Source: a virus. From it: a stretch of 50,030 bases of DNA. A program made the position numbers and the translations under genes. The notes beneath the pieces were generated by a model. That model worked only from the letters and a program-made list of their open reading frames with translations. It was not told the origin of the DNA and searched no databases. This document shows, piece by piece, positions 10,156 through 29,411 of this stretch (its first letter is position 1; the number at the start of each line of letters is the position of its first letter). The stretch lies in IMG/VR virus record IMGVR_UViG_3300042528_000536, positions 1-50,030 of that record; one strand, given 5' to 3'.

Positions 10156-10803
10156 ATGCTATTACAGATTAATGGAATCGGCGATCAAAAAATCGAATAC
10201 AAAGACCACAACACCATAAAGTTTGACGATCTAAAAACTTATATACTACTAGCAAAAAAGGCCATATCTAAGTTTGGTCCAAAATTTTATAGTGGACTAT
10301 CAGCAAAAATGCTTAAGGACGAGGACGCGGTATCCTCAATAGCTAATGCTATCATGATGGCGGATTGGAGATGGGATGATAATAGGCTTGGACTAAATGG
10401 AGCAAAGAAAACCAAGTACTCTTACAGAAATCAGTGTGCTTTGTGGGCCATAAAAACATATGTTTCAAAGGAACATAAGCACACCAAGAGAACAAAGGCT
10501 TATTCTCTAGATTATGTAACAGATGAAAATGATAGCGGCTATCATTCACTGTCTGCCGATGCTAGATGTGAGCAACCCGATGATATAGCTATGAAAAATG
10601 AAGAATCAGAAAATTTATCATCTCTTATAGAACAGCTTCTTTCACTAAATAGTTTGACAGATAAACAAAAAGACTATATCAAATTATATTACTTTGAATC
10701 TTATACATTCGAACAAATTGGAAGCAAGTACGGGGTCACTAGAGAGGCTGTCAGACAAGGCCTAAATAAAGCCCTCGACACAATCAGAGGAGTTCTAACT
10801 TGA
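10156..10803 (+). CDS. RNA polymerase sigma factor, sigma70 family
   Basis: 215 residues. A region-2-like segment contains FSYR-type text (TKYSYRNQCALWAIKTYVSK, about 91-110). A typical region 4 occupies about 163-212: LTDKQKDYIKLYYFESYTF, then EQIGSKYGVTREAVRQGLNKAL, the helix-turn-helix that reads the -35 element. It is short, with no region 1.1, like alternative or phage sigma factors. It should redirect host RNA polymerase to phage promoters; GGTGTAT sites in this window are candidate targets. Its own promoter looks sigma70-like. The stop overlaps the TTG start of the next gene. Confidence 0.88.
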   Translation: MLLQINGIGDQKIEYKDHNTIKFDDLKTYILLAKKAISKFGPKFYSGLSAKMLKDEDAVSSIANAIMMADWRWDDNRLGLNGAKKTKYSYRNQCALWAIKTYVSKEHKHTKRTKAYSLDYVTDENDSGYHSLSADARCEQPDDIAMKNEESENLSSLIEQLLSLNSLTDKQKDYIKLYYFESYTFEQIGSKYGVTREAVRQGLNKALDTIRGVLT

Positions 10804-11667: not shown

Positions 11668-12117
11668 ATGACATCAAAAAAACCACTAATAGTTTGGCAA
11701 AAATGGATTGATCCTTTTGGCAAGGATACCGATCAAAGCCGATGGACAGACTACGATAACGAGAGTCTCGATATAGACTTGTATAGAAATCAAGACTCCG
11801 ATACCGAAGATCAACCAATACCAAAGCAGGCTGGGGAAAGTATTAAAGTTATAGCTTCTCCTATGGGTATTATTCCATATAATGAACACACCGCTTCTGG
11901 AAAGATCTTTAATTTCTGGACAGGCCACACCAACTTTGATATTACCAAAGAAATCATAGATATATTAGAGAGCGTTGATGGTGTTGAAACCTTAGATGTA
12001 TTTACTAGATATAGATTTAGAATCGCCACAGGCAAATGCTTCGATGACGCATTGGTTATGAATGCTATAAATAAGACCGTATATAAATTCTTAGATAATA
12101 AATATGAATACCCATAA
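11668..12117 (+). CDS. Hypothetical phage protein
   Basis: 149 residues. The central part reads KVIASPMGIIPYNEHTASGK, followed by IFNFWTGHTNFDI; the C-terminus has VDGVETLDVFTRYRFRIATG. It has a beta-alpha-beta look and no known catalytic motif. A start at 11668 is likely, though upstream Shine-Dalgarno content is weak (CTTAAGAAAC). The 3' end overlaps the ClpP-like gene by 14 bases. Confidence 0.55.
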   Translation: MTSKKPLIVWQKWIDPFGKDTDQSRWTDYDNESLDIDLYRNQDSDTEDQPIPKQAGESIKVIASPMGIIPYNEHTASGKIFNFWTGHTNFDITKEIIDILESVDGVETLDVFTRYRFRIATGKCFDDALVMNAINKTVYKFLDNKYEYP

Positions 12118-12772
12118 CACTATCAATGATATACACACTAATAATATCGACATAGAAAATAGAGAGATATACCTCCATGCTCCTTTGGATAATATCGAAG
12201 AAAGCAATCTAGATTATAGGTCTGCTGTAATTTTTGAAAAAAATCTAAGATATCTGAATCTTATATCTTTAGACCCTATTTTTATACATATGCATTTGCC
12301 AGGAGGAGAATGGCAAGACTGCTTAGGGATGTATGACGCCATCAAGGCATCCAAAGCAAAAACTATAATTTTAGCATATGCAAGAGCCGAGTCCTCTAGC
12401 AGCGTCTTATTACAGTCTGCTGATCTCAGGATATTAATGCCTAATACTAATGTTCTGATTCATTATGGGTCATTTAGCTTAGATGGCGAACACTCAAAAG
12501 CAGCAGCGAGTTCTATTAAATGGAACGAACAAGAATGCGATAAAATGGTGGACATATTCACAGATAGGTGTATGCAGAGTAGTATGGCGAAAGAAAAAAA
12601 TTGGAAAAGAATGATGGCAAAAAAACATATTGTGTCGCAATTAGCCAATAAATGCGATTGGATATTAACAGCTGAAGAAGCGGTTAATTATGGTTTCGCT
12701 GACGGTATTCTTGGTAGCAAGAAATATCCAAATATTGACTATATAAAAAACTATACGAAAAAACAAAAATAA
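12104..12772 (+). CDS. ClpP-like serine protease (possible prohead protease)
   Basis: 222 residues. ClpP-family landmarks are in order: HLPGGEWQDCLGMYDAI (64-80, usually S-P-G-G), ARAESSSSVLLQSAD (93-107) aligned with the nucleophile elbow so that Ser97 is catalytic, PNTNVLIHYG with His120 (usual P-N-x-x-x-x-I-H-Q), and CDWILTAEEAVNYGFADGI with Asp185. The nucleophile context A-E-S-S-S-S replaces the usual A-S-M-G/A-S-A-G. ClpP-fold enzymes serve as prohead maturation proteases in many phages, which is my favoured role, but none of the head genes is adjacent. It could be an independent peptidase. Confidence 0.8.
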   Translation: MNTHNTINDIHTNNIDIENREIYLHAPLDNIEESNLDYRSAVIFEKNLRYLNLISLDPIFIHMHLPGGEWQDCLGMYDAIKASKAKTIILAYARAESSSSVLLQSADLRILMPNTNVLIHYGSFSLDGEHSKAAASSIKWNEQECDKMVDIFTDRCMQSSMAKEKNWKRMMAKKHIVSQLANKCDWILTAEEAVNYGFADGILGSKKYPNIDYIKNYTKKQK

Positions 12773-14746: not shown

Positions 14747-15151
14747 ATGGCAGCTAGCAAATACGACTTCTCTATAGAACAGGGTTCCTCTTTTAGACTA
14801 TCCATAGTCCATCGTAACGATTCTGGTAATCCTATAAATATGACAGGATATTGTGCTAGGGTAATATGGAAAACCAGCAGCGGTGAAAGTATGATATTTA
14901 GCTCGGAAAATACAAATTATTCACAATATAAGTTTACTATTGATCCTCTAAACGGGAAAATAACACTACTTATCCCCGCTGGTGTCACAAATAATTATGC
15001 TTTTAGCAATGCTAAATATGATCTAGAAATACAAACACCGCAAGACCTTTATCTTGGGGGTGGAAAAAATGTTGAAAGAGTTCTTTATGGCACAGTTACA
15101 ATACTAAAACGATTTAGCCAATCAACAGAACAACTGAGCTGCTCAACATGA
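14747..15151 (+). CDS. Phage baseplate/fibre-attachment domain protein (BppU-like)
   Basis: 134 residues. The opening KYDFSIEQGSSFRLSI followed by NPINMTGYCARVIWK is the common phage beta-sandwich module (D-F-x-I-E-Q-G ... L-T-G-Y-x-A-R) found in fibre and baseplate upper proteins. A Gly-rich loop (LGGGKNVERVLYGTVTIL) closes the domain. It overlaps the long fibre gene by four bases, supporting a joint structural role, probably linking the fibre to the tail. Confidence 0.65.
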   Translation: MAASKYDFSIEQGSSFRLSIVHRNDSGNPINMTGYCARVIWKTSSGESMIFSSENTNYSQYKFTIDPLNGKITLLIPAGVTNNYAFSNAKYDLEIQTPQDLYLGGGKNVERVLYGTVTILKRFSQSTEQLSCST

Positions 15152-17751
15152 GTATATTTACTGTTGAAATTTCTCCATCCCAGGTTACCAGCGTTGAAAT
15201 AGAAACGACGGTGGGACAAAATCCATCTAATATAGATATTATAACTTCTTCAGCTGTTAATTTAGAGATAACCAATAGTGTTGCTTTACTACCATCAGAT
15301 TTTAATTCTAATATAGACTCTAGACTATTCTCTGTTATTAATGCTGGATCCGGAATAGATATAGAATATGATATTAATCAGCCATCAATAACAATATCCT
15401 CTACCGGAGACTATGCTAATAAAACTCATAGCCATAATCCAGAAGATATAAACAATTTATCTACATTTATAAATAATAATATATCATCTACAATAAGTGG
15501 TCTACAAAGTCAAATTGATAATAAACAGCCGGTAGGTAACTATGCCACTTTAATTAATGGATTGATACCTCCGTCTCAACTACCAAGTTATGTTGACGAT
15601 ATCCTAGAATATAATAATTTATCATCTTTTCCTATAAGCGGTGAGAGTGGTAAAATTTATGTATCTTTAGATAATAGTAAAGTCTATCGTTGGGGTGGTA
15701 CAGGATACATAGAGATTAGTGCTTCACCAGGATCATCAGACTCTGTACCAGAAGGCAATACTAATAAGTATTATACAGATGCTAGGGCAAGCGCAGCAGC
15801 ACCAGTACAAAGCGTATCCGGCAAGACTGGTGCGGTCACACTCAATAAAAACGACGTTAATCTAGGTAATGTTGACAACACTAGCGATGCTAACAAGCCC
15901 ATTAGCACAGCGGTTCAAACTGCACTAGACAGCAAACAGCCCGCTGGGAATTATGCTGCTGCTACCCATAACCACGCTATCAGCGAAGTAAGTGGATTGC
16001 AGACCGGTCTAGACAGCAAAGCTCCTCTTGCTAATCCCACGTTTACCGGTACTGTGAATGGCATAACCAAAAGCATGGTTGGCCTAGGCAATGTTGATAA
16101 CACTAGCGATACCAATAAGCCGGTTAGCACATCACAGCAAAGTGCTTTAGATCTTAAGGCTCCACTTGCTAGCCCAACTTTTACTGGCACTGTTAACGGT
16201 ATAACTAAAAGCATGGTCGGTTTAGGCAATGTTGATAACATCAGCGATATAAATAAACCAGTTAGTGTTCCACAGGCTTCAGCAGATGCGGCTGTACAAG
16301 CAAACGCCGCCATAGACGCCTCAACAAAAGCAAACTCTGCTCAAGCACATTCTATACAAAGAGCCAATCATACTGGTACCCAAGATATTGCCACAATTAA
16401 TGGCTTACAAACAGCACTAGATAATAAAGCTGCTCTGGCTCATGGCCACAACATATCAGATATAAGTAATCTGCAGAATACACTAGACAATAAACAACCT
16501 GTTGGTAATTATGCTACATTGATTAATGGGCTTGTACCAGCGGTTCAATTACCAAGCTATATAGATGATGTTTTAGAGTACTTAAACCTCTCCACATTTC
16601 CTGTCGTTGGCGAAACTGGAAAAATTTATATATCCTTGGATAACAATAAAACATACCGTTGGGGTGGAAGCTCGTACATAGAGATTACTGCTTCCCCAGG
16701 TAGTACGGATAGCATAGCAGAAGGCGGTGTCAATAAATACTATACCGACGCCAGAGCTAGTGCTGCTGCTCCCGTACAAAGCGTGGCTGGTAAAATCGGT
16801 AATATTAGTCTAGTCAAAAATGATGTTGGATTAGGCAACGTTGACAACACCAGTGACGCTAACAAGCCAGTTAGCACAGCACAGCAAAGTGCTTTAGACC
16901 TTAAAGCTCCTCTTGCTAACCCGACCTTTACGGGAACTGTGGCTGGCATTACCAAAAGCATGGTTGGTCTAGGTAGTGTCGATAACACTAGCGATGCTAA
17001 TAAACCAATCAGTAGTGCGACCCAAACAGCATTAGACCTTAAGTCTTCAGTTGGGCATAATCATACATATTCTGACATTTCTAACTTCAATACTGGCGTA
17101 GAGTCAATTGTTAGCACATCATTAATAGCTGGTAGTAATATAGTTTTAACTTATAATACATCAGCAGACACCCTAAGTATATCAACTTCTGGTTTGCAGC
17201 CAGCCGGAAATTATGCCAATGCCACACATACCCACATTATTGATAATATTACTGGACTACAAACTGCTCTAGACAATAAACAAGCCACTGGCGACTATGC
17301 AACTAATACCGATATTAGCAACCTACAAACACAGATAAATAATAAACAAGCATCTGGTGACTACTCTTTAGTTGGCCATCAGCATATTAGTACAGATATT
17401 AGCGATTTTGAAAATAGGGTGGTTTCTATTGTTGCAACAGGAGTACCACTTGAGTATTTGGCAACGTCCGTGTTGGTTCATGATGATCCCATCGATATTA
17501 CTGGTGATTTTAGTAGCATCACAAAAGAATACGTATATATTTTTAAAGATAGTGCTGTGGGATACAAACTAATATTACCAACTGCGATTAATAACAAAGC
17601 TCAATATACTCTTAAAAATAAGACATCAGATACCATATATTTATATCCACATTCATCTCAAACGATAGACGGTTATGATTCTATAGGTCTTAACAGAATG
17701 GATATGTCTATATCTGTGATTAGCGATGGGTCGAACTGGATTATGGTGTAA
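15148..17751 (+). CDS. Long tail fibre with LGNVDN repeats
   Basis: 867 residues. The repeat LGNVDNTSDANKPVST(A)QQSALDLKAPLA is present five times with PTFTGTV-type links, a hallmark of phage tail fibres. A segment of about 125 residues is duplicated (15520-15900 and 16487-16870; QPVGNYATLINGL ... YRWGG ... KYYTDARASAAAPVQSV). His-x-His motifs (THSHNP, ATHNHAIS, GHGHNIS) recur, as in trimeric fibre shafts. The C-terminal 100 residues (from about VHDDPIDITGDFS) form a separate knob-like tip that could bind the receptor. No chaperone-domain signature is visible. Confidence 0.85.
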   Translation: MSIFTVEISPSQVTSVEIETTVGQNPSNIDIITSSAVNLEITNSVALLPSDFNSNIDSRLFSVINAGSGIDIEYDINQPSITISSTGDYANKTHSHNPEDINNLSTFINNNISSTISGLQSQIDNKQPVGNYATLINGLIPPSQLPSYVDDILEYNNLSSFPISGESGKIYVSLDNSKVYRWGGTGYIEISASPGSSDSVPEGNTNKYYTDARASAAAPVQSVSGKTGAVTLNKNDVNLGNVDNTSDANKPISTAVQTALDSKQPAGNYAAATHNHAISEVSGLQTGLDSKAPLANPTFTGTVNGITKSMVGLGNVDNTSDTNKPVSTSQQSALDLKAPLASPTFTGTVNGITKSMVGLGNVDNISDINKPVSVPQASADAAVQANAAIDASTKANSAQAHSIQRANHTGTQDIATINGLQTALDNKAALAHGHNISDISNLQNTLDNKQPVGNYATLINGLVPAVQLPSYIDDVLEYLNLSTFPVVGETGKIYISLDNNKTYRWGGSSYIEITASPGSTDSIAEGGVNKYYTDARASAAAPVQSVAGKIGNISLVKNDVGLGNVDNTSDANKPVSTAQQSALDLKAPLANPTFTGTVAGITKSMVGLGSVDNTSDANKPISSATQTALDLKSSVGHNHTYSDISNFNTGVESIVSTSLIAGSNIVLTYNTSADTLSISTSGLQPAGNYANATHTHIIDNITGLQTALDNKQATGDYATNTDISNLQTQINNKQASGDYSLVGHQHISTDISDFENRVVSIVATGVPLEYLATSVLVHDDPIDITGDFSSITKEYVYIFKDSAVGYKLILPTAINNKAQYTLKNKTSDTIYLYPHSSQTIDGYDSIGLNRMDMSISVISDGSNWIMV
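15862..17045 (+). repeat. Tail-fibre repeat units (LGNVDN, five copies)
   Basis: Copies of a unit containing ggtaatgttgacaacac or close variants begin near 15862, 16087, 16222, 16834 and 16969. They encode LGNVDN(T/I)SD(A/T/I)NKP. Synonymous divergence among copies shows the array is not very recent. Confidence 0.75.
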
Positions 17752-18142: not shown

Positions 18143-20746
18143 ATGGCTTTAACTAATACCCTAAGAACCCAAGTAGACCTTCCGGTATGGGAGTGGCTAA
18201 GATTTGCTCCCGCAGTATCCTCTGCTGTGAGTTCAGCCTGCTCTGCGGACAATAGTTTATACCACGTTAATCACGGAAGATATATTTATTATTTAATTGC
18301 TAATGCTAGTTTTTGGAGATATGACACATACACCGATACATATTTACAACTTGCGAGTCCGGTTGTGACCCCAACAACATTTAGCAGCATGAAATTTGCT
18401 GGTGCTGCTGGCCATAATGGTAGGGTCATTAGTGCTACTGCTAACACTATTACCACAGATACTATATATGATAAAATTTTAAAGGGATTTGATATTAAGA
18501 TAGTGGGCGGCACTGGTGCTGGTCAACAAAGAACCATAATAAATGTTTCAGATGTTGTTGTTGCTGACACCGGCGTATCAACCGCTGTAACAAGTAGCAC
18601 ATCGTTAGTTAGAATCACCGACACTACTAAAAACTGGACCATCAACCAGTGGGTAGGATACCAAGTAAGAATTTTATTTGGTTCTGGTATCTCTCAAATT
18701 AGAAAAGTTTTATATAATGATGCCACAACTATAACCCTGGCAGATATTAATCAGTTAGCACAAAACGTTGATGCGATGGCGCCGATGGCCACAGCTATTT
18801 CTGTCACAGCAGGCTCTCAATCAATATATACCATAGAGTCTGGTACTCTTACAGTAGACTCCAACTGGACCACTCAGCCGGATGAAACCTCAAGATTTGT
18901 TATTCAGTCTGGTGGTATATACCTATATACAAATGCATCACCAAACTTAACATATTATGACATTGCTGCTGATATTTGGTATTATCGAACAGCACAGGGT
19001 AGTGTTCTTAGTAATATCACCATAACAGATGGAACCGTAGAAAGAACAACAGAAAATTCATCTATATGGTCAAAGGGTACAGCAACTTCTGGAACAACAA
19101 CCTCCTTGGTTGATACGTCGAAAAGCTGGACGCCTAATCAGTATGCTGGTTACTGGGTTCGTATTTTTAGCGGAACTGGTGTTGGACAACTTAGACAAAT
19201 AGTTTCTAATACTAGTAATACATTAACATGGAGCAACGCCGGTACTGCACCAAATTCAACATCACAATATATGATAGAAGGTTTTGATGCTGGTACAGCA
19301 TCCTCTGGAACAAGCACATCCATCACCGACTCGTCAAAAAGTTGGTCAACCAACAGGTGGGCTAATTATGTAGTGCTTATTACTGGTGGCACCGGCGCGG
19401 GTCAACAAAGAATAGTATTAAGTAATACCTCTACTAGCATAACTGTTGCGACACCTTTTGATGTCACTCCAGATAATACATCAACCTTTAAAATCCAAGG
19501 AGATACTGATCTTTTATATCTGGCTCTTGGCGCACACTCTAGTATCTATACTTATTGCGTAGAAGAAGATATGATTGTTGGTAATAAAAAAATAGACGGC
19601 GGTGTTGCAAGAAGCGGCGCGGCAGCATATGGGTCGCATAAGCCCATAGCAATATCCTCAACAACAAGGTCTGGAACAACAGCTACTGTAACAACGGTAC
19701 AGAGTCACAACTTTAAAACAGGATACTCTGTCACTCATTCTGGTGCAACAGGGGCTGATGCCTCTTTGTATAATATAACAGCAACAATTACTGTTACTGG
19801 CGCTACAACTTATACCTATACTATTAGCGGAACTCCTTCGGCCAATGCCACATTTACTGCTCATAGTGCCACAGTATTGGTTGACTCTACAAAGAATTGG
19901 ACCACTAATCAGTGGGCTGGTTATGTTTGCTATATGACAACATCATTAAGCGCATCAGCCACAGGACAATCTTTTAGAATAGCATCTAATACTGCTAACT
20001 CATTAACCTTTACTACGTCTGTAACTACGCCAGTTAACGCCACAACGAAGTATGTTATTTCAAAACCAAATGCTTTTGGAGCATTAGACAATGGCATCGC
20101 AACCGGCACACATTCCACAACAACACTTCAGGACACATCCAAAAACTGGGTTACAAATATTTGGGCCGGTCGCAGGGTAAAGTTTACTGGTGGTGCGGGT
20201 GTTTCGCAAGAGGCTACTGTATCATCTAATACTAGCAACACATTAACTTTTTCAGCCGCTGTAACCACAGCAGCAACAAGCAATAGTACAACCTATTCAA
20301 TTCTAGCACCTGTTGCCAAAGGTGCGGGTCTTAATTTCACATGGAACTTTGGTGTCTCAGACGCTAACAAGAGAGGAAATCATCTAATTATATCTAGGGG
20401 TGGTGGCTCTCTTGGTTTTGAAAGATATAATATTAATACTGACTCTTGGGATTTGGTTTCAACCACGCCACAAACGGAAACTCTCGGCAGTAGTTCACAG
20501 TATGCTTATGATGGCAATGACCGTATTTATTTTAGTAAAGATTTAACACAAAGATGTTATTATCTGGACTTGGATACTTATACGATGCATGGCGCTGGAC
20601 TCTTTCCTTATACTCAAGCTACTACAAATACAGGTCTTGGCATTAGTAATAGAATGGAAATATTCGAAACACCCGACCACTTAAAGTATTTGTGGATAAA
20701 TAGACAGCTAGGTGCAGAGTGTTTTAGAGCTCTGTTATTTTATTAA
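18143..20746 (+). CDS. Large virion protein with DTSKNW repeats
   Basis: 867 residues. About six imperfect repeats follow the pattern D-(T/S)-(S/T)-K-(N/S)-W-x-x-N-(Q/R)-W-A-G-Y-x-V-x-I-x-x-G-T-G-x-G-Q-x-R-x-I-x-S-N-T (for example near residues 155, 310, 390, 575 and 650). This beta-repeat occurs in structural proteins of many large phages. The N-terminal 120 residues (VDLPVWEWLRFAP) are likely the attachment domain. The C-terminal 160 residues (GAGLNFTWNFGVSDANKRGN onward) resemble a beta-propeller-like cap. Role: baseplate or fibre component, by repeat type and position. Confidence 0.7.
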   Translation: MALTNTLRTQVDLPVWEWLRFAPAVSSAVSSACSADNSLYHVNHGRYIYYLIANASFWRYDTYTDTYLQLASPVVTPTTFSSMKFAGAAGHNGRVISATANTITTDTIYDKILKGFDIKIVGGTGAGQQRTIINVSDVVVADTGVSTAVTSSTSLVRITDTTKNWTINQWVGYQVRILFGSGISQIRKVLYNDATTITLADINQLAQNVDAMAPMATAISVTAGSQSIYTIESGTLTVDSNWTTQPDETSRFVIQSGGIYLYTNASPNLTYYDIAADIWYYRTAQGSVLSNITITDGTVERTTENSSIWSKGTATSGTTTSLVDTSKSWTPNQYAGYWVRIFSGTGVGQLRQIVSNTSNTLTWSNAGTAPNSTSQYMIEGFDAGTASSGTSTSITDSSKSWSTNRWANYVVLITGGTGAGQQRIVLSNTSTSITVATPFDVTPDNTSTFKIQGDTDLLYLALGAHSSIYTYCVEEDMIVGNKKIDGGVARSGAAAYGSHKPIAISSTTRSGTTATVTTVQSHNFKTGYSVTHSGATGADASLYNITATITVTGATTYTYTISGTPSANATFTAHSATVLVDSTKNWTTNQWAGYVCYMTTSLSASATGQSFRIASNTANSLTFTTSVTTPVNATTKYVISKPNAFGALDNGIATGTHSTTTLQDTSKNWVTNIWAGRRVKFTGGAGVSQEATVSSNTSNTLTFSAAVTTAATSNSTTYSILAPVAKGAGLNFTWNFGVSDANKRGNHLIISRGGGSLGFERYNINTDSWDLVSTTPQTETLGSSSQYAYDGNDRIYFSKDLTQRCYYLDLDTYTMHGAGLFPYTQATTNTGLGISNRMEIFETPDHLKYLWINRQLGAECFRALLFY

Positions 20747-22404: not shown

Positions 22405-23442
22405 ATGGCAACATTTTACTTCAACGGTGCGGCAGACGTCGCGGCTGAACTGCCTGGCGACTGGCAGACTCTCGGCAACTGGTGGACGGACTCTGCCCAC
22501 ACCGTTGCCGCGTCTGCCCTGCCCACCAGCAGCGATAGTGTCGTTTTGAGTGCCAGCGTGGCGATCAACAGCGGCAGTGCGCCAACTGTGGTGAACCTGA
22601 CGCTCGTCCGGCCCGGCGATGTGTCTGTGTCTCTCTTGGTCGCAATCACCGTCACCGGCCAAGCGGCGATCAATATGGGTACGCAAAACGGCAGTACCGG
22701 CACCATCAACGGCAACGCGACGTTTAACGACGGCGCGCTCAACATCGGCACCGTCAACGGCAACGCGACGTTTAACGACGGCACGCAAAACTACGGCACC
22801 GTCACCGGAGACGCGACGTTTAACGACGGCACGTACAACATCGGCACCGTCACCGGAGACGCGACGTTCAACAACAGCACGCAAAACTACGGCACCGTAA
22901 CCGGAGACCCGACGTTTAATGACAGTTCGATCAACAGCGGCACCGTCACCGGCAACGCGACGTTCAACGATTATTCGGTCAACAACGATGGCTGCACCAT
23001 CAACGGCAACGCGACGTTCAACTACAGTTCGCGCAACTACGGCACCGTCACCGGAGACGCGACGTTTAATGTCAGTTCGTTCAACGCAGGCACCGGCACC
23101 GTCACCGGAGACGCGACGTTTAACGACAGTTCGACCAACTACGGCACCGTCAGCGGCGATGCGACATTCAACGACAGTTCGCTCAACGGCAGCGATGTCT
23201 ACGGCGATGCGACGTTTAATGATTCTGCGTACAACGGCGCCTTTGGGCCGGGATACACTTTCTACGGTCGCGTTCATGGCAATGCGACATTCAACGACAG
23301 TTCGTACGTCAACGACGGCGGCACAGTCGATGGCGATGCGACGTTTCGCGGCGCGTCTTACAACCGACGCGGGATCATCGGCAATGTGATTATCGCCTAC
23401 GACAAAGGCATCAACGGTTCCTCTATCCTTGGAATAGTATAA
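22405..23442 (+). CDS. GC-rich beta-solenoid repeat protein, probable recent acquisition
   Basis: 345 residues behind TTAGGAGAAAATA. The N-terminal 90 residues (MATFYFNGAADVAAELPGDW, then LGNWWTDSAHTVAA) resemble bacterial surface-protein starts. Then about 13 units of roughly 16 residues with core G-(D/N)-A-T-F-N-D-x-S/T-x-N-x-G-T-V follow, a right-handed solenoid pattern that recalls bactofilin-like or secreted beta-helix repeats. Base composition is obviously GC-rich with C/G third positions, unlike the AT-rich genes on both sides, and the shift coincides with the gene boundaries. I infer transfer from a GC-rich bacterium, probably the host. Function: surface mimicry or receptor binding is possible but unproven. 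Confidence 0.78.
   Translation: MATFYFNGAADVAAELPGDWQTLGNWWTDSAHTVAASALPTSSDSVVLSASVAINSGSAPTVVNLTLVRPGDVSVSLLVAITVTGQAAINMGTQNGSTGTINGNATFNDGALNIGTVNGNATFNDGTQNYGTVTGDATFNDGTYNIGTVTGDATFNNSTQNYGTVTGDPTFNDSSINSGTVTGNATFNDYSVNNDGCTINGNATFNYSSRNYGTVTGDATFNVSSFNAGTGTVTGDATFNDSSTNYGTVSGDATFNDSSLNGSDVYGDATFNDSAYNGAFGPGYTFYGRVHGNATFNDSSYVNDGGTVDGDATFRGASYNRRGIIGNVIIAYDKGINGSSILGIV
22699..23360 (+). repeat. 48-base GC-rich coding repeat, about 13 units
   Basis: Units share ggcaccgtcaccggagacgc and gacgtttaacgac-like segments at roughly 48-base spacing, with two longer units near 23190 and 23250. They encode the solenoid of the GC-rich gene. Not palindromic and without unique spacers. Confidence 0.8.
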
Positions 23443-23446
23443 TGCT

Positions 23447-25351
23447 ATGCCAATCTACCTTAAAGACAATAAATTATTAACAAGTAATATGCCTAGTCTT
23501 ATAGATAAGACTATAATAGCAAATCATATAAACTCCTCAACAGCTTCTAGATTATCTGGTAAAAATCCCTCTACCGACCGTTTTGTATACTCATCACAAA
23601 ATCCTTATGGCGGCGTGGGCGATGCGGGAATTTGGGTTCGCAATTCCAACTGTTGGATAAATGGAGTAAGCAATATTAGTTGCTTTAGCCCAGCGCAAAG
23701 AAGCGGAGCATCTTGGAATACCAGAGGTGGCACACTCATAACTCGCAAACACGTTCTATTTGCCAAACACTATAAAACCAGCATTCTTCCTAACGGTGGA
23801 ACCCCGTTAATCTTTGTTGATGAAAATAATAACGCCATAAGGCGAAACATAATACAATATGGCGACGATATTTCTGATATAACAATAGCTCTATTAGATA
23901 GTGAAGTTCCATCTAATATAAAGATAGCCAAAGTTTTACCTAAAAACTATCAAGACTATATGGTTTTAGGGTGGCCGACCGGTGGCGATTTGGACTATGG
24001 ATTATTAGGCATCTTGGGTGTTGGCTTAGATCAAGAAGAAAAAGCTCATGTAAAAACATCTACAACTGTAGACTATAATAGTCTATATCATATAATTGCT
24101 TTTGATAATTTTTCCGGTCCCCAAGGTAGCATTAATCCATATCCACAGTGGACAGAAGATATTGTTGTTGGAGACAGTGGAAACCCAGTTTTTTATATCA
24201 TAGATAACGAATTGGTAGTTTTAACCACTTGGTGGACTCCTACTAATGGTCCTTTTATTACCAAGAGATATGATCAAGTTAATGCTATAATAGAAGAATT
24301 AAGTCCCGGACAAGGATATTCTTTAACCCCAATAGACCTACAAGCAGTCTATGATAAATATTATCCTAGATCATTTAGATGCATACGTAAACAAAGCACT
24401 AGTAAAAACATTATACCACAACACATTAACTCTGGTACAGCAAGTAGGCTGGTTGGTAAAAATCCAGCTACTGATTGCCTAGTCTATTCTTCTCAGAATC
24501 CATACGGTGGCGTTGGTGATGCTGGAATATGGGTCCGAAACCCCAGCTGCTGGATAAATGGAGTAAGTAATATTAGCTGCTTTAGTCCAGCACAGCGTAG
24601 CGGTGCGGCGTGGAATACTCGCGGTGGTACTCTCATAACCAGAAAACACGTTTTATTCGCTAAACACTTTGTTACCAGCATATTGCCAAATGGTGGGACG
24701 CCAATAATATTTGTTGATGAGAATAATAATGCTATTCGTAGAAATATTATACAGTATGGTGATGAGAGTACCGATATTGCAGTAGCTCTTTTAGATAGCG
24801 AAGTGCCTAGTAATATAAAAATAGCAAAAGTATTACCAACTAATTTTATGGATTATCTTAGTAGTAGTATTTTGGCCTCAGTATATGATAGTCTTGGATT
24901 GCAGATTAGCTCTTTTAGTATGAATCCTTGGCTTTATGCTGTAGCCCTAGATCAAGAAGAAAAAGCCATATTAAAACTTTGGTCTGGAGCCAATTTGTTC
25001 GGAATTGGAACCTCGCCAAACATCGAGTACTACCAAATGGCCAGTGTCAGTAATATAAACCCCAACGCTTCATATAGTACTCCAATAGTACCATCTCCGA
25101 ATCAATTCGCTTCATGGACCGAAGACATAATAGTAGGCGACAGTGGAAATCCAGTATTTTTAATTATAGATAACGAGCTGGTTGTTTTAACAACTTGGTG
25201 GACACCTACCGGCGGACCATTTATCACTAATAGATACTCTATAGTTAATAGTATTATACAAAGCTTAAGCCCCGGCGAGAACTATAGCTTAACACCAATA
25301 GATTTACAAGCGGTTCAAAACAAATACGAATTCTCTAATTTTAGTAGCTAA
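23447..25351 (+). CDS. Tandemly duplicated chymotrypsin-fold serine protease
   Basis: 634 residues in two homologous halves, about 22-305 and 321-623. Each has a full catalytic triad in S1-family order: first half His108 (LFAKH), Asp144 (SDITIALL), Ser244 (VGDSGNPVF); second half His407 (LFAKH), Asp443 (TDIAVALL), Ser566 (VGDSGNPVF). The motif GDSGNP replaces GDSGGP. The repeated region SCFSPAQRSGA(S/A)WNTRGGTLITR is nearly identical between halves. The second half carries an extra insert of about 40 residues (470-550). The gene starts five bases after the GC-rich gene and lies at the end of the virion block, so a tail-borne or released protease acting on host surface protein is my inference. 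I expect both halves active. Confidence 0.85.
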   Translation: MPIYLKDNKLLTSNMPSLIDKTIIANHINSSTASRLSGKNPSTDRFVYSSQNPYGGVGDAGIWVRNSNCWINGVSNISCFSPAQRSGASWNTRGGTLITRKHVLFAKHYKTSILPNGGTPLIFVDENNNAIRRNIIQYGDDISDITIALLDSEVPSNIKIAKVLPKNYQDYMVLGWPTGGDLDYGLLGILGVGLDQEEKAHVKTSTTVDYNSLYHIIAFDNFSGPQGSINPYPQWTEDIVVGDSGNPVFYIIDNELVVLTTWWTPTNGPFITKRYDQVNAIIEELSPGQGYSLTPIDLQAVYDKYYPRSFRCIRKQSTSKNIIPQHINSGTASRLVGKNPATDCLVYSSQNPYGGVGDAGIWVRNPSCWINGVSNISCFSPAQRSGAAWNTRGGTLITRKHVLFAKHFVTSILPNGGTPIIFVDENNNAIRRNIIQYGDESTDIAVALLDSEVPSNIKIAKVLPTNFMDYLSSSILASVYDSLGLQISSFSMNPWLYAVALDQEEKAILKLWSGANLFGIGTSPNIEYYQMASVSNINPNASYSTPIVPSPNQFASWTEDIIVGDSGNPVFLIIDNELVVLTTWWTPTGGPFITNRYSIVNSIIQSLSPGENYSLTPIDLQAVQNKYEFSNFSS

Positions 25352-25406: not shown

Positions 25407-25619
25407 ATGGCCAATAATATTCAAAAGGCTGTTTCTGCCAACCAAATTAAAAACGGAACATCTGTTGTTTCAACTACTGCCACAGGTAATAGTTCACTAT
25501 TAAACACCTATGTGAAAAACACACCAGATATGCCTTCTATTGAAACAAAATATAGCAATAGATTTACTAATGGCATATTGGTTACTCTAGTTGATGGCGG
25601 CTCTATAGTTGCACCATAA
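25407..25619 (+). CDS. Small hypothetical protein (70 residues)
   Basis: Behind AAAAGG. Asn/Ser/Thr-rich with no membrane segment, ending VTLVDGGSIVAP. It might be a small virion or cassette-opening protein. No family recognised. Confidence 0.5.
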   Translation: MANNIQKAVSANQIKNGTSVVSTTATGNSSLLNTYVKNTPDMPSIETKYSNRFTNGILVTLVDGGSIVAP

Positions 25620-25640
25620 CACTAATAGCGGGACTAATCT

Positions 25641-25952
25641 ATGATTAAGCCTGGATATAGAACCAGTGAATTCTGGTTCACTCTGGTTAGTTTTTTGTTT
25701 AGCGGTCTATACTTATGTGGTTTACTTGAAGATAATCAGCAAAAAGAAGATTTGATTCAAGAAACTAGCAAGGGATTAGAAGCTACTATACTAATAATAG
25801 GACAATTAACAGTCTTATTTAAGTATATTAATGGACGAACTAATCTAAAGCAAACTTGGTGGAGTACTGCCACAGAGCAAGAAAGAAAAGAAGCCAATAA
25901 GGCAAATGCTCGTAAAAAAAGAAAGCCTCGCAGCAAAACCAAAAGCGTTTAA
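25641..25952 (+). CDS. Holin-like small membrane protein (putative)
   Basis: 103 residues. Two transmembrane segments (about 10-28 FWFTLVSFLFSGLYLCGLL; about 48-64 ATILIIGQLTVLFKYI) separated by an acidic loop, then a strongly basic tail (KKRKPRSKTKS). The short length, two helices and a charged C-terminus fit a class II holin. Other small phage membrane proteins share this shape, so the call rests on topology and on the neighbouring protease gene. The start has a weak site (GCGGGA). Confidence 0.55.
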   Translation: MIKPGYRTSEFWFTLVSFLFSGLYLCGLLEDNQQKEDLIQETSKGLEATILIIGQLTVLFKYINGRTNLKQTWWSTATEQERKEANKANARKKRKPRSKTKSV

Positions 25953-25965
25953 TCATTTTCCTGTG

Positions 25966-25973
25966 CGGTGTAT
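25966..25973 (+). promoter_or_regulatory. GGTGTAT motif, candidate phage promoter element
   Basis: CGGTGTAT ends 24 bases before the ATG at 25998, with AGGAG-like sequence between; nearly the same spacing as the copies at 8064 and 8772. Confidence 0.5.
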
Positions 25974-25997
25974 ATACTCGATATAGGAGCACTATGT

Positions 25998-26420
25998 ATG
26001 ACCACATCTATTCAAAATCAGATACTTAGTATAGAACTCTCTTCTTCGTTAGAAGCACTAATTGATAAAGTTAAAAAGTCTCTATCTGGCTCAAAGTCTG
26101 TGGCTATGTCTCAGGCTTGGGGAATATTACAGATCGCTATAGCAGAAACAATAAAGATCATAGAGACATCAAACCCGTCATTAAAGGGGTCTAATAAAAA
26201 GACTATAGCATTAGCCATGCTTAGTATGTTTTATGATAAGGTATTTTTAGTTGTAACCGTCCCCTATGTTCCAGTTGTACTACAGCCTATTATAAGTAAA
26301 TATACAAAAGCTCTTTTGATGTTGCTCGTGAGTTCAGCTATAGACTCTATGGTTGAAATTTTTAGAAAGAGCGGAATTTTTACAGATCCAAATAGTGTAC
26401 CAGAGGTCTCAGACAAATAA
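25998..26420 (+). CDS. Membrane-associated hypothetical protein
   Basis: ATG at 25998 chosen over GTG 25968 because ATAGGAGC lies upstream and the GTG overlaps the GGTGTAT motif. 140 residues; a polar N-terminal half, then a strongly hydrophobic stretch (about 82-120: KVFLVVTVPYVPVVLQ, then ALLMLLVSSAIDSM) that may be one or two membrane helices. No family recognised. Part of the envelope cassette. Confidence 0.55.
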   Translation: MTTSIQNQILSIELSSSLEALIDKVKKSLSGSKSVAMSQAWGILQIAIAETIKIIETSNPSLKGSNKKTIALAMLSMFYDKVFLVVTVPYVPVVLQPIISKYTKALLMLLVSSAIDSMVEIFRKSGIFTDPNSVPEVSDK

Positions 26421-26431
26421 GAGGAAACGCC

Positions 26432-26815
26432 ATGAATTTTACAGAGAGTTTTGATCAATTTGCTAGCAAACTATCCACAATGGATTTGGCTCTTTATGCT
26501 GGCGTGGGTTTGGTTTTATGGGTTTTATTTAAGGATAAGTTAAGCCCCGTGCAAAAATTAGTTCTAAATTTAACAGAAAAGGTCAAAGGGGTTTTAAATC
26601 CCGGCGCACCGGTACTACCAGTAGTAGCCAAGCCAGTGGTGAGTGTTGAGACTAAGAACAATGAAGATGTTTTCTTTAAGTTAATTGTTAGCTGGAAACA
26701 AACTAGAGATTTGGCCGTACAAAGTGGTTGTGTTGAGGCGGTAAAGGTGGCCGATCAAATGTTTCCCTTTTTATCCCCAAATGTGTGCGCAAAAAAGCAG
26801 GATACCTTATCATGA
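26432..26815 (+). CDS. Single-span membrane protein
   Basis: 127 residues behind AAGAGGAAAC. One transmembrane segment (about 17-33: MDLALYAGVGLVLWVLF), a basic-rich link, a Pro/Val-rich linker (PGAPVLPVVAKPVV) and a helical C-terminal domain with two cysteines. Overlaps the next gene by ATGA, so the two are probably co-translated and may interact, as spanin or holin-antiholin pairs do; that is inference. Confidence 0.55.
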   Translation: MNFTESFDQFASKLSTMDLALYAGVGLVLWVLFKDKLSPVQKLVLNLTEKVKGVLNPGAPVLPVVAKPVVSVETKNNEDVFFKLIVSWKQTRDLAVQSGCVEAVKVADQMFPFLSPNVCAKKQDTLS

Positions 26816-27315
26816 CTTTGAATACAAAAAATTTAGTATTGGTCGTTGGTGCGATACTAATAATTATTGGTCTAATTAAACCAGACCTCTCAAACCTATT
26901 AGTTCTGCCCAACAGACCCGTAGCAATAGATGTTCTAGAGCTACCAGCCCCAACAGAAGCCAATCTTAAAAAAGAGGCAGAAGAAGTAGTATCTCTATTA
27001 AAGTCTTATAGTGCTGCTAAGTCAGACCTCAAGAGATTGAGAGATCTAATGTTGGATTTGGGCAGACTAGTGGAGTTGGATGGTGAGGATACTGTTATTA
27101 AAAATACCGAAGAAATTCGTCAGGCTAATAGTTTGTCGGGGGTTATGTTGCGTTTAGATATTAAGGGTAAATATCCCGACTTGGCTAAAGAGTCCAAAGA
27201 GGTGGTTGTGGCTGCTGTTGGTGATGATAATATTAATCTATCACCAGAATTAAGAGTAAAAGCTGTAGAAGGTTTTAATGCTCTTGCGTGGGCATATAAT
27301 GAGGCTAGTAAATAA
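26812..27315 (+). CDS. Membrane-anchored protein with soluble helical domain
   Basis: ATG at 26812 in an ATGA overlap, preceded by AGGATA; an in-frame GTG at 26785 would add nine residues. 167 residues: N-terminal membrane anchor (about 7-24 NLVLVVGAILIIIGLI), a Pro-rich link and a helical soluble domain (about 46-160). An anchor plus an external domain next to a protease suggests a periplasmic partner; no signal-peptidase II lipobox is present. No family recognised. Confidence 0.55.
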   Translation: MTLNTKNLVLVVGAILIIIGLIKPDLSNLLVLPNRPVAIDVLELPAPTEANLKKEAEEVVSLLKSYSAAKSDLKRLRDLMLDLGRLVELDGEDTVIKNTEEIRQANSLSGVMLRLDIKGKYPDLAKESKEVVVAAVGDDNINLSPELRVKAVEGFNALAWAYNEASK

Positions 27316-28241
27316 TGCCAAGACTAACACCCCAAGAATGGTATAATAAATATAGACAGGGATACGAAGGCGCATTGTGGAATCAAAAAGAGTTTGACCA
27401 CTTGATGGAAACTTTAAAGTATCCATTGTTTGGTGATGCTAGTAAAAGAATTACTAATACTGGAAAAAACAAATTAAGCCTACCATACAAATCTGTATAT
27501 CAGTTTGATAAAAAACCATACGAAGAAAGACAAGTTACTGGGGATTGCGTAAGCCATGGAACGAGAAACGCCTGCGACATTAGCAGAGCTGTAGAAATAC
27601 ATGTTGGGGGAGAAAGAGAAGCATGGATAGCGAGAGGTGCTACTGAAGCAATCTATGGTAGTAGAGGATGGAGTGGCGAAGGCATGACCGGCAGTAAGGC
27701 TGCTGAGTTTGTTAGTAAAATTGGCGGTATTCTTGTTAGACAAAATTATAAGGGCGTTGTGGATCTAACTAAATATAATGGTATGCTGGGAGCTGGTTGG
27801 GGCGGTCGAGGCGTTCCAGATGCGGTAATAGATCTGGCTAATGACCACCAAATTAAAACAGCTTCGTTGGTAAGAACAGTAGAAGAAGCTCGCGACGCCC
27901 TAGCTAATGGATATGGAATAGCTGTTTGTTCTAATTATGGCTTTAGTAATAAGAGAGATAGCAAGGGCTACTCTAGAACTAGCGGAAGTTGGGCTCATTG
28001 TATGGCTTTTATTGCTTGTGACGACACCAAAGGTGATACAAGCTTTTTAGTACAAAATAGCTGGGGTAAATGGAATGATGGTGGACATCCAGAGTGGGGT
28101 CCAATACCAGACGGCTCTTTCCTAATCCATTCTGATGTGGCCGAAGGCATGTTGAAACAAAACGGGTCATACTCATTCTCTAGTTTCAACGGCTTTCCTC
28201 TGCAAAAACTACCAGACTACGGTTTTGATAGCTATCTATAA
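27315..28241 (+). CDS. Papain-like cysteine protease
   Basis: 308 residues, TAATG overlap with the previous gene. Catalytic layout of the C1A peptidase family: RQVTGDCVSHGTRNACD with Cys78 (and Gln73 in the oxyanion position), SWAHCMAF with His228, and FLVQNSWGKWNDGG with Asn248. The Q-x-x-x-x-C spacing is one shorter than papain's. No signal peptide. No chain of cell-wall binding repeats. It sits amid small membrane proteins in a cassette with lysis-like architecture, so a proteolytic endolysin or an envelope protease is a reasonable inference; alternatively it processes virion proteins. The triad is clear. Confidence 0.85.
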   Translation: MPRLTPQEWYNKYRQGYEGALWNQKEFDHLMETLKYPLFGDASKRITNTGKNKLSLPYKSVYQFDKKPYEERQVTGDCVSHGTRNACDISRAVEIHVGGEREAWIARGATEAIYGSRGWSGEGMTGSKAAEFVSKIGGILVRQNYKGVVDLTKYNGMLGAGWGGRGVPDAVIDLANDHQIKTASLVRTVEEARDALANGYGIAVCSNYGFSNKRDSKGYSRTSGSWAHCMAFIACDDTKGDTSFLVQNSWGKWNDGGHPEWGPIPDGSFLIHSDVAEGMLKQNGSYSFSSFNGFPLQKLPDYGFDSYL

Positions 28242-28244
28242 AAT

Positions 28245-28252
28245 CGGTGTAT
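28245..28252 (+). promoter_or_regulatory. GGTGTAT motif, candidate phage promoter element
   Basis: CGGTGTAT four bases after the cysteine-protease stop and 41 bases before the ATG at 28294. Confidence 0.5.
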
Positions 28253-28293
28253 CTAAATATTATTAGAGAAGTCCTTTTTAAAAGGGTTGACCG

Positions 28294-28470
28294 ATGAGAC
28301 TTATTGATAAAATCGCTTTAAATAGGCTAATTTCTATTATAGCCGATCTTGTAATTCGTTTAGCTAAAATTTTTGCGGATAAATCACCCGTAAACAATCC
28401 CTCTAAACCCGTTAGACCAAAACCTCTTAAGAGATTAATAGATATTGTTCCACTCCCTTGGAGAAAATAA
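28294..28470 (+). CDS. 58-residue amphipathic microprotein
   Basis: ATG at 28294 behind AAAAGGG, stop TAA 28468-28470 overlapping the ATG of the next gene. N-terminal half is an amphipathic or weakly hydrophobic helix (LNRLISIIADLVIRLAKIF); the C-terminal half is basic and Pro-rich (KPVRPKPLKRLIDIVPLP). The coding call rests on the ribosome-binding site, the TAATG coupling and the upstream motif. It could act on membranes. No family recognised. Confidence 0.6.
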   Translation: MRLIDKIALNRLISIIADLVIRLAKIFADKSPVNNPSKPVRPKPLKRLIDIVPLPWRK

Positions 28471-28760
28471 TGAATAAATTAATTTCTGGTTTGGTAATTT
28501 ATACTATGTTATTTGGTTCATCTTATTATGGATCAACAACAGCAGTAGTAACTTTATCTGGCGCCATAATCAAAGCAAAAAGCATTGAGAATACAAAAAA
28601 ATACAAAAGAAAAGACTGCCCAGTTTGCAAAGGCAAAGGTTGGTATATGAGCGGAGACAACATTAAAAAAGTTGACTGCGGATATTGCGAACCAGAAGAA
28701 GGTGCGAGTCAGTCGGAGTGCGAAGATGGTCAGTGCAAAACCAAGGTGAGTAAAAAATAA
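28470..28760 (+). CDS. Membrane-anchored zinc-ribbon protein
   Basis: ATG at 28470 (TAATG) with TTGGAGAAA upstream. 96 residues: N-terminal hydrophobic segment (LISGLVIYTMLFGSSYY and STTAVVTLSGAII), a basic stretch, then CPVCKGKGWYMSGDNIKKVD and CGYC, a DnaJ-like C-x-x-C-x-G-x-G pair, with two further Cys near the end. It may be a metal-binding or redox protein at the membrane. Function unknown. Confidence 0.6.
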   Translation: MNKLISGLVIYTMLFGSSYYGSTTAVVTLSGAIIKAKSIENTKKYKRKDCPVCKGKGWYMSGDNIKKVDCGYCEPEEGASQSECEDGQCKTKVSKK

Positions 28761-28762
28761 TT

Positions 28763-29170
28763 ATGCATAAGCCAAATAAACAAGACTCTGAGAAACTAGA
28801 GGCGATAGCTAAAAAGGTTCTGGTAGACGCGGGTTTGGCTGGTGATGAAAAATTTGGTAGTGTAATAGCTATACTAATGATTATTAGTGTTATTTTGACC
28901 TCTATTCGTATATTACAGGAATGCAATAAAAATAGAACTCAGTATATGACACATGACGAAAAATGTGCAGCATACGGAGAAGAGATAAAAGAATTTAGCA
29001 ATAAAAGAGGCTGGTTCACTCGCCTAAGAATAAAAAGAGTACTAAAGAGAGAAATGACCAAAGAAGAGTACGAACAATACGGATTTAAGCTTATAGAATC
29101 AATATTAAGTATAGGAGAAACCCTCACGGACGATGAAATTAAAACCTTAGTGGAGAATGCAAATGTTTAA
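28763..29170 (+). CDS. Membrane protein, hypothetical
   Basis: 135 residues, two bases after the previous stop. Central transmembrane segment (about 33-50: SVIAILMIISVILTSIRI), then a charged helical domain (about 60-135) rich in Lys/Glu/Arg. No family recognised. Overlaps the GlsB-like gene by eight bases. Confidence 0.55.
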   Translation: MHKPNKQDSEKLEAIAKKVLVDAGLAGDEKFGSVIAILMIISVILTSIRILQECNKNRTQYMTHDEKCAAYGEEIKEFSNKRGWFTRLRIKRVLKREMTKEEYEQYGFKLIESILSIGETLTDDEIKTLVENANV

Positions 29171-29411
29171 TATTTTAGTATGGTGTGTTTATGGTTTATT
29201 TGTTGGTTCCATAGCCAAAAGCTTGGTGCCGGGCGATGAGAATTTCAATATGACCAAAACAATTGCCCTAGGGGTTGCTGGCTCATATATGGGCGGCGCT
29301 GTTTTATATCTATTAGGAACATACCAAAGTCTTAGTCCAGCTGGTATTTTTATGGGAGTTGCTGGCGGCGTATTAAGTTTGCTCCTATATAATAAACTTG
29401 TCTCCAAGTAA
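29163..29411 (+). CDS. GlsB/YeaQ/YmgE-family membrane protein
   Basis: ATG at 29163 preferred over 29157 because GGAG lies at 29152. About 82 residues, three predicted membrane helices: NILVWCVYGLFVGSIAKSL, TIALGVAGSYMGGAVLYLL, and GIFMGVAGGVLSLLLY. The pattern I-x-G-L-x-A-x-x-I-A-K-x-x-x-P-G, here VYGLFVGSIAKSLVPG, with Gly-rich second and third helices, matches the transglycosylase-associated (GlsB/YeaQ) family, small inner-membrane proteins of stress regulons, biochemical role unclear. Last gene of the cassette. Confidence 0.7.
   Translation: MFNILVWCVYGLFVGSIAKSLVPGDENFNMTKTIALGVAGSYMGGAVLYLLGTYQSLSPAGIFMGVAGGVLSLLLYNKLVSK

What the first reader, a model, noticed from the sequence alone, without database searches (positions are those of the whole stretch)
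25407..29411. Envelope cassette of small membrane proteins around a papain-like protease
Seven or eight small genes with membrane segments (25641, 25998, 26432, 26812, 28294, 28470, 28763, 29163) flank a cysteine protease with an intact Cys78/His228/Asn248 triad. The arrangement is like a lysis cassette, but no lysozyme, amidase or transglycosylase was recognised. If the protease is the lytic enzyme, lysis here would be protein-directed, a design I cannot match to a known system.
Basis: partly seen in the sequence, partly recalled or inferred. Interest (0 to 1): 0.78.

Follow-up and report, generated by a model that had tools for sequence, protein, structure and literature searches.

The report
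Conserved protease cassette in uncultured phages
A large group of uncultured bacterial viruses carries a papain-like protein-cutting enzyme in a fixed row of small membrane proteins and shows no recognisable cell-wall-cutting enzyme, so these viruses may break out of their host by cutting protein; this is not yet shown.

Summary
A 308-aa protease (27315-28241; Cys78/His228/Asn248) sits in a row of small genes, mostly with membrane segments. The row is a real unit: of 80 related IMG/VR loci, 67 carry all nine genes (25641-29411), always in one order; none breaks the order, though 2 of the other 13 clearly carry different DNA where neighbours belong. In a diverged clade (~50% identity) the protease keeps four partners in a rearranged row, with different multi-pass (holin-like) genes. 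AlphaFold2 on a 97-sequence alignment (pLDDT 88.6) gives a C1A papain fold (xylellain, Z 20.5), although no Pfam or PHROGs family matches. A 152.7-kb record contains the whole window. No lysozyme, SLT, Amidase_2, CHAP, M23, NlpC/P60 or M15_4 domain passed its cut-off in 19-38 records per search. A separate ClpP-like protease is the better head-maturation candidate. Best reading (0.45): a lysis/egress module whose effector is a protease. Lysis, substrate and host are not shown. Planctomycete-like motifs on phage subtilases hint at a host, but planctomycetes do have peptidoglycan, so a hidden muralytic enzyme remains possible.

The parts
25641..25952 (+). 103-aa protein, two hydrophobic segments, basic tail; holin-like candidate of the near clade
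   Evidence: in 73 of 80 near loci; no far-clade counterpart by hhalign
25998..26420 (+). 140-aa protein, two C-terminal hydrophobic segments; holin-like candidate
   Evidence: weak match to a PHROGs holin, E 0.0034; 76 of 80 near loci; hhalign gave 92.9% to the far 26432-like family but over 52 columns at 2% identity, not counted as homology
26432..26815 (+). 127-aa protein with N-terminal membrane segment; flanking charges favour a cytoplasmic C-terminus
   Evidence: 77 of 80 near loci; far-clade homologue, hhalign 98.2% probability; charges
26812..27315 (+). 167-aa protein with N-terminal anchor; charges predict N-in/C-out, the topology of an inner-membrane spanin; start overlaps the end of 26432
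   Evidence: 78 of 80 near loci; far homologue 99.8%; C-flank not more positive than N-flank in 64 of 64 near and 36 of 37 far
27315..28241 (+). 308-aa C1A papain-fold cysteine protease, Cys78/His228/Asn248, Gln73 conserved; no membrane segment by hydropathy and no signal peptide by eye
28294..28470 (+). 58-aa protein, moderately hydrophobic N-terminal half
   Evidence: 76 of 80 near loci; hydropathy peak 1.59; no far counterpart
28470..28760 (+). 96-aa protein, signal-like N-terminus plus CxxCxGxG zinc-finger-like motif; far-clade relatives sometimes lipoprotein-like or fused to thioredoxin
   Evidence: 76 of 80 near loci; far homologue 98.0%; lipobox pattern in 6 of 38 far and 1 of 61 near; three far fusions to thioredoxin, two of them scanned and matched by Pfam
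28763..29170 (+). 135-aa protein with one membrane segment
   Evidence: 74 of 80 near loci; far homologue 98.9%
29163..29411 (+). 82-aa protein with three membrane segments, similar to the Transgly_assoc family
   Evidence: PF04226 E 4.6e-05, 24.0 bits, just below cut-off 25.3; 74 of 80 near loci
12104..12772 (+). ClpP-like (S14) protease; Ser, His and Asp kept in 8 of 8 genomes by eye; head-maturation candidate, separate from the cassette
   Evidence: phrog_94 head maturation protease E 3.2e-18; PF00574 E 1.8e-14; alignment
10156..10803 (+). Sigma-70 region 4 protein, points to a bacterial host
   Evidence: PF04545 E 2.9e-13

Best explanation
The genes 25641-29411 form a host-exit (lysis) module of a large uncultured phage group. 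Small multi-pass proteins (25641, 25998, 29163 here; unrelated 60-75-aa two-pass proteins in the far clade) act as holins that open the inner membrane. This lets the signal-less C1A protease 27315-28241 reach the envelope, where it cleaves proteins that hold the envelope together rather than glycan. The N-in/C-out anchored protein 26812 and the exported Cys-rich protein 28470 take the place of the two spanins, and the Cys-rich or thioredoxin-fused partner may help keep the catalytic cysteine reduced. Shown: the gene unit, the conserved triad, the fold prediction, the shared partners across two clades, and the absence of the searched peptidoglycan hydrolase families. Inferred: holin and spanin roles, export of the protease, its substrate, and lysis itself.
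For: Order kept in 67 of 67 loci that have all nine genes, none of 80 breaks it. In 56 loci with at least 5.5 kb upstream, 25641-26812 are all found (56 of 56) while 22019, 22405 and 23447 further upstream are found in only 7-8. The far clade keeps the protease with homologues of 26432, 26812, 28470 and 28763 but has different multi-pass genes. Model pLDDT 88.6 matches C1A proteases, Z about 17-20 in the 50 entries shown. In G001, which holds the whole window at 99.9-100% identity, Pfam scans showed no peptidoglycan hydrolase (limits under Tried and rejected). No match over cut-off: PF00959 0 of 36 and 0 of 19, PF01464 0 of 35 and 0 of 19, PF01510 0 of 35 and 0 of 19, PF05257 0 of 38, PF01551 0 of 38, PF00877 0 of 38, PF13539 0 of 38. 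26812 topology; lipobox and thioredoxin variants of the 28470 partner. Of the G001 proteins listed, the protease is one of five above 50% identity in both far genomes.
Against: Holin matches are weak (E 0.003-0.006). A lipobox is the exception (6 of 38 far, 1 of 61 near) and thioredoxin lies near the protease in only 5 of 65 far and 0 of 31 near loci. 26432 looks cytoplasmic at its C-terminus, which has no role in this scheme. In L014 and L060 the row is incomplete although DNA continues. Finding no peptidoglycan hydrolase is not the same as there being none: 15 of 40 weaker Pfam families of one scan were not displayed, several proteins and short ORFs were not scanned, CHAP and M23 were not searched in the far clade, and novel lysins escape. 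If the host is a planctomycete it has lysozyme-sensitive peptidoglycan sacculi (PMC4432640, abstract and passages). Conservation close to that of capsid proteins would also suit a virion-linked enzyme.
Confidence: 0.45

Rival explanations
1. The protease is a virion-assembly or virion-associated enzyme (processing capsid, tail fibre or ejected proteins), and the membrane genes beside it are late genes of other function.
For: Conservation close to that of capsid and terminase proteins; a gene related to G001 14177 (weak Hoc-like decoration match, E 0.0075) lies near the module in the far clade (hhalign 97.8%); tail-fibre genes lie upstream in the window; no signal peptide seen.
Against: It is not in the head module (terminase, portal, a structural gene and the putative major capsid gene at G001 79-86 kb, opposite strand). 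A ClpP-like protease with a head-maturation PHROG exists in 8 of 8 genomes. The fixed partners are mostly membrane proteins.
Confidence: 0.2
2. A peptidoglycan hydrolase of an unrecognised family, here or elsewhere in the genome, is the true endolysin; the protease is an accessory that removes protein cross-links such as outer-membrane anchors.
For: Profile searches miss novel families; several core structural proteins had no PHROGs match (5 of 10 scanned); planctomycetes, a possible host, have peptidoglycan.
Against: No match over cut-off for the seven families searched; the other genes of the conserved row are short (58-167 aa).
Confidence: 0.22
3. The module remodels the host envelope during infection (superinfection exclusion, takeover of membrane proteins, regulation) rather than ending it.
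For: A membrane-anchored PAS-like protein sits upstream of the protease in 29 of 65 far loci; 26432 looks cytoplasmic; subtilase and exported trypsin-like genes elsewhere suggest wide use of proteases.
Against: Superinfection genes are usually variable (recalled), whereas this unit is strongly conserved.
Confidence: 0.13

Closest known systems
C1A (papain) peptidases, nearest solved structure xylellain of Xylella fastidiosa (3ois)
   Same: Fold over residues 14-292, Z 20.5, rmsd 3.0, 233 residues aligned; Cys/His/Asn triad; NSWG motif; residues from about 5 onward fall in the range aligned to pro-forms of several procathepsins.
   Different: 14% identity; no Pfam or PHROGs family for the protein and no significant PDB sequence match.
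Holin-endolysin-spanin lysis cassettes of tailed phages
   Same: Compact row: small membrane proteins, one soluble signal-less enzyme, an N-in/C-out anchored protein, an exported and sometimes lipoprotein-like partner.
   Different: The enzyme is a C1A-fold protease with no recognised wall-binding or glycan-cutting domain; more membrane genes than usual (recalled).
Papain-family N5 domain of mycobacteriophage Lysin A (PMC3314691, passages seen)
   Same: A papain-superfamily cysteine peptidase in a phage lysin.
   Different: There a domain of endolysins that mostly have three domains, best HHpred match C39-like; here a free-standing C1A-fold enzyme.
Predicted C1-fold proteins of uncultured Caudovirales and other phages in BFVD
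   Same: Foldseek E from 9e-7 to about 1e-9 for rows named as phage among the first 15; one row is named 'Peptidoglycan binding-like' and one 'N acetylmuramidase'.
   Different: 13-18% identity; names come from the library; gene neighbourhoods not examined.

Membership tests
C1A papain peptidases | Cys-His-Asn triad with oxyanion Gln | tested here: met
   C78, H228, N248, Q73 in 250 of 250 extracted proteins (extraction required the Cys and NSWG motifs, so only His and Gln are unbiased; 4 of 253 loci not extracted). All four also invariant among 63 proteins taken by match range.
C1A papain peptidases | papain fold | tested here: met
   AF2 pLDDT 88.6; xylellain Z 20.5, procathepsins and papain Z about 17-19; a prediction, not a solved structure.
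C1A papain peptidases | match to a curated Pfam family model | tested here: not met
   No Pfam family up to E 1.
C1A papain peptidases | proteolytic activity blocked by E-64 | not testable with these tools
   Needs purified protein.
Phage lysis cassette | holin | tested here: inconclusive
   Multi-pass small genes beside the protease; PHROGs holin matches only E 0.0034 and 0.0062.
Phage lysis cassette | endolysin of a known muralytic family | tested here: not met
   None in the cassette and none of seven families over cut-off in the related records searched.
Phage lysis cassette | inner-membrane spanin plus outer-membrane lipoprotein spanin | tested here: inconclusive
   26812 topology fits in 64 of 64 near sequences; lipobox in 6 of 38 far and 1 of 61 near 28470 relatives.
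Prohead maturation protease | lies among the head genes, near portal and major capsid genes | tested here: not met
   Head genes are on the other strand at G001 79-86 kb, the protease at 27,985.
Prohead maturation protease | cleaves capsid proteins during assembly | not testable with these tools
   Needs virion proteomics.
CHAP or NlpC/P60 hydrolases | closest structural relatives are CHAP/NlpC | tested here: inconclusive
   The 50 PDB entries shown are papain-family proteases; absence of others from a top list does not exclude kinship.

The most novel reading that the evidence does not exclude
A large uncultured phage lineage leaves its host by protein-directed lysis: holin-like proteins release a C1A cysteine protease that dissolves a protein-reinforced envelope, with exported Cys-rich or thioredoxin partners keeping it active in the periplasm, a membrane PAS protein (far clade) sensing the moment, and no need for a peptidoglycan hydrolase; the host is a planctomycete or a relative.
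Probability: 0.22. Interest if true: 0.88.

Novelty: new variant of a known kind. Interest (0 to 1): 0.62.

Why it matters
Tailed phages are expected to cut peptidoglycan to escape. A widespread lineage (518 and 525 confirmed stretches in two capped IMG/VR scans that overlap) with no recognised muralytic enzyme but a strongly conserved papain-type protease in a membrane cassette makes protein-directed lysis directly testable, gives a handle on phages of hosts with unusual envelopes, and offers a protein family that the Pfam and PHROGs libraries used here miss.

Tried and rejected
Single-protein and profile searches of the PDB by sequence found no significant match. tblastn of three protease variants and of two partner proteins against 50,697 phage records gave no significant match; the weak phiCbK hit (E 3) lies on the strand opposite the annotated genes and was dropped. 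The first structure model (63 similar rows) was poor, pLDDT 46, and was not used. Archaeal host: considered because two relatives sit in a Lokiarchaeota MAG; set aside because the phage carries sigma-factor domains, RecA and SSB matches and a polymerase that I take by eye for DnaE-like (no family search). The four MAG relatives carry labels of three phyla and were not used as host evidence. Sub-threshold hits: the M15_4 one lies in that DnaE-like protein; both NlpC ones lie in repetitive fibre-like proteins, by eye; the M23 one in G032 was not looked at. Fold list: no CHAP/NlpC chain in the 50 rows shown; this does not exclude kinship. Trypsin-like reading of 23447-25351 was not confirmed by Pfam or PDB sequence search. 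Thioredoxin as a general neighbour: rejected, 5 of 65 far and 0 of 31 near loci.

Limits: Pfam scans of G001 covered proteins of at least about 90-100 aa outside the window and most window proteins. Not scanned by Pfam: window 18143-20746, 29457, 30066, the genes within 37398-45954, 49717, G001 58720, and short ORFs. In one search, 15 of 40 families were not displayed (E above about 1.4e-6); one search rescanned 29 of those 59 members with all families shown. PF05257 and PF01551 were searched in near-clade records only; PF00877 and PF13539 in 21 near and 17 far. No control was run on comparable cultured phages, so the rate at which these searches miss real endolysins is unknown.

Papers: searches showed no paper, among the rows listed, whose title or abstract start describes a free-standing C1A protease as a phage lysin; most subscription-journal papers are outside that library. 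Seen: passages of PMC10318531, PMC3314691 and PMC3422733, abstract and passages of PMC4432640; the rest only as search listings.
Full report
Observation. The window is a 50,030-base virus record with phage genes along it. The genes at 25641-29411 are present as described, and the 308-aa protein 27315-28241 has Cys78, His228 and Asn248. Seven of the eight small genes named have a hydrophobic segment; 28470 has only a signal-like N-terminus. Gene 25407 has no membrane segment and no fixed place in relatives.

Is it a unit? A scan of viral contigs kept 80 of 122 confirmed loci, encoding the protease at 71-100% identity. All nine genes were found in 67, always in the same order and strand, and none of 80 breaks the order. 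Of the other 13, nine simply run out of DNA near the missing genes, two (L013, L058) end 0.4 kb beyond the protease, and two (L014, L060) carry other genes where neighbours belong. Median gaps are 50 bases or less, with inserts of over 500 bases after the protease in 7 of 76 loci and after 28470 in 5 of 74. The region further upstream is much less conserved: in 56 loci with at least 5.5 kb upstream, genes 25641-26812 are each found in 56, but 23447 and 22405 in 8 and 22019 in 7. The protease is under strong purifying selection (dN/dS 0.027-0.044 in three comparisons).

A second, diverged clade. Scans seeded with 52%-identical proteins found in MAG contigs gave a far clade. Profile searches on 83 far loci, many of them short, found 26812 relatives in 57, 28763 relatives in 26, 26432 relatives in 18 and 28470 relatives in 5; one of the 83 (L212) has the near-type row. 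Clustering of 65 dereplicated far loci gave a 26432-like family in 46, a 26812-like one in 37 and a 28470-like one in 36. hhalign between near and far families supports homology of 26432 (98.2%), 26812 (99.8%), 28470 (98.0%) and 28763 (98.9%). No far counterpart was found for 25641, 28294 or 29163; 25998 aligned to the 26432-like family at 92.9% but over 52 columns with 2% identity, which I do not count. Far loci carry a 73-aa protein upstream (33 of 65) and a 60-aa protein downstream (31 of 65). A membrane-anchored protein sits upstream in 29 of 65; of two members scanned, one passes the Pfam PAS cut-off (25.5 against 22.6 bits) and one does not (18.6).

What the enzyme is. No Pfam or PHROGs family gave a usable match, nor any PDB sequence. 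With a 97-sequence alignment AlphaFold2 gave pLDDT 88.6 and pTM 0.91. The best solved match is xylellain, Z 20.5, then procathepsins and papain at Z about 17-19: a C1A papain fold. Cys, His, Asn and an upstream Gln are invariant in 63 aligned proteins and in 250 extracted ones (where Cys and Asn were part of the extraction pattern). There is no membrane segment by hydropathy and no signal peptide by eye, as in holin-dependent endolysins, but also as in cytoplasmic or virion enzymes.

Other lytic enzymes. Record G001 (152,676 bases) contains the whole window at 99.9-100% identity; its two ends carry related repeats, so it is probably near complete, but no completeness estimate was given. Pfam scans of its proteins showed no peptidoglycan hydrolase (15 weaker families were not displayed, and some proteins were not scanned). 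Searches of related records of 84-244 kb found no match over cut-off for PF00959 (0 of 36, one of them a bacterial MAG, and 0 of 19), PF01464 (0 of 35, 0 of 19), PF01510 (0 of 35, 0 of 19), PF05257 (0 of 38), PF01551 (0 of 38), PF00877 (0 of 38) and PF13539 (0 of 38). Controls rang in 1 to 11 of 14 genomes, the least for PF13539. Four sub-threshold hits were seen; three look false by eye, one was not examined. No comparable cultured phages were run as a control.

Virion role? Terminase and portal were identified by PHROGs, with a structural gene and the putative major capsid gene next to them, on the opposite strand at G001 79-86 kb. The putative capsid protein matches phage G's major head protein at 22% identity, E 5e-7. 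A ClpP-like protease at 12104-12772 best matches a head-maturation PHROG and, by eye on the alignment, keeps Ser, His and Asp in 8 of 8 genomes, although it too lies far from the head genes. The C1A enzyme is therefore not needed to explain head maturation, but a virion role is not excluded. Of the G001 proteins listed it is one of five above 50% identity in both far genomes, beside the putative capsid protein, cement, terminase and a 113-aa protein.

Partners. Flanking charges put the C-terminal domain of 26812 outside the cytoplasm (64 of 64 near, 36 of 37 far) and that of 26432 inside in most (54 of 63 near, 29 of 46 far). 28470 and its relatives have an N-terminal signal-like segment and a Cys/Gly-rich motif; a lipobox pattern occurs in 6 of 38 far and 1 of 61 near; three far ones are fused to thioredoxin, two of which were scanned and matched. 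Thioredoxin within the fetched flank was found in 5 of 65 far and 0 of 31 near loci; four of eight genomes have one elsewhere, by motif. Holin matches are weak.

Host. Sigma-factor domains and RecA and SSB matches point to a bacterium. Near-clade records carry subtilases (19 of 21; far 0 of 17; phiCbK 0 of 1). In all eight near-clade records where I read a second subtilase type, it begins with a motif of the form E-x-L-E-x-[RK]-x-[LV]-L (G001 and G003; G002, G007, G037, G038, G039; G004). In eight genomes 2 of 1262 ORFs of at least 100 aa have the stricter pattern near the N-terminus, both subtilases, and 200 shuffles gave none. I recall this as the LEPR-XLL motif of planctomycete exported proteins; no tool call tested that. 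Planctomycetes were long held to have a proteinaceous wall (PMC3422733, passages) but do have lysozyme-sensitive peptidoglycan (PMC4432640). A planctomycete host would suit envelope proteases but would not remove the need to breach peptidoglycan. No close cultured relative was found.

Verdict. The cassette is real, conserved and unusual. The reading that it is a lysis module with a protease as effector is the best of several (0.45); a pure protein-directed lysis without any muralytic enzyme is possible but less likely (0.22). Function remains unshown.

Noticed in passing
G001 92062-93381, G003 15008-16216, L341, L342, L343, L344, L345, L346: Phage subtilases with an N-terminal E-x-L-E-x-[RK]-x-[LV]-L motif resembling the planctomycete LEPR-XLL motif (recalled), a possible host marker.
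   Followed up: partly
G001 146435-147181 and 147162-148106: Overlapping genes for an exported trypsin-like protease (family in 6 of 8 genomes) and a subtilase (this type in 5 of 8, a longer type in G003); S8 in 19 of 21 near-clade records.
   Followed up: partly
far clade, e.g. L196:5096-5686 and L083:5194-5766: Membrane-anchored PAS-like protein just upstream of the 73-aa two-pass gene and protease; possible sensor.
   Followed up: partly
window 23447-25351: 634-aa protein of two tandem copies with GDSGNP motifs; looks like paired trypsin-like domains but no family search confirmed it.
   Followed up: partly
window 22405-23442: Bactofilin-like match below cut-off with a 48-base tandem repeat in a stretch of higher G+C.
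   Followed up: no
window 1-861: Short-period tandem repeat arrays (about 9-120 bases) at the record's left end; related repeats lie at both ends of G001.
   Followed up: no
G001 60393-71294: Very long protein, 3634 aa (5209 aa in G014); its group of proteins gave a phage minor tail protein match, so perhaps the tape measure.
   Followed up: no
loci L007, L022, L038, L039, L045, L047, L054, L062, L063, L076 and others: Extra DNA of roughly 0.5-3 kb inserted after the protease (7 of 76) or after 28470 (5 of 74) in near-clade loci; contents not examined.
   Followed up: no
L014 and L060: Two near-clade loci with other genes where cassette neighbours would be expected: a 471-aa repeat-rich ORF after the protease (L014), an unrelated ORF upstream (L060).
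   Followed up: partly
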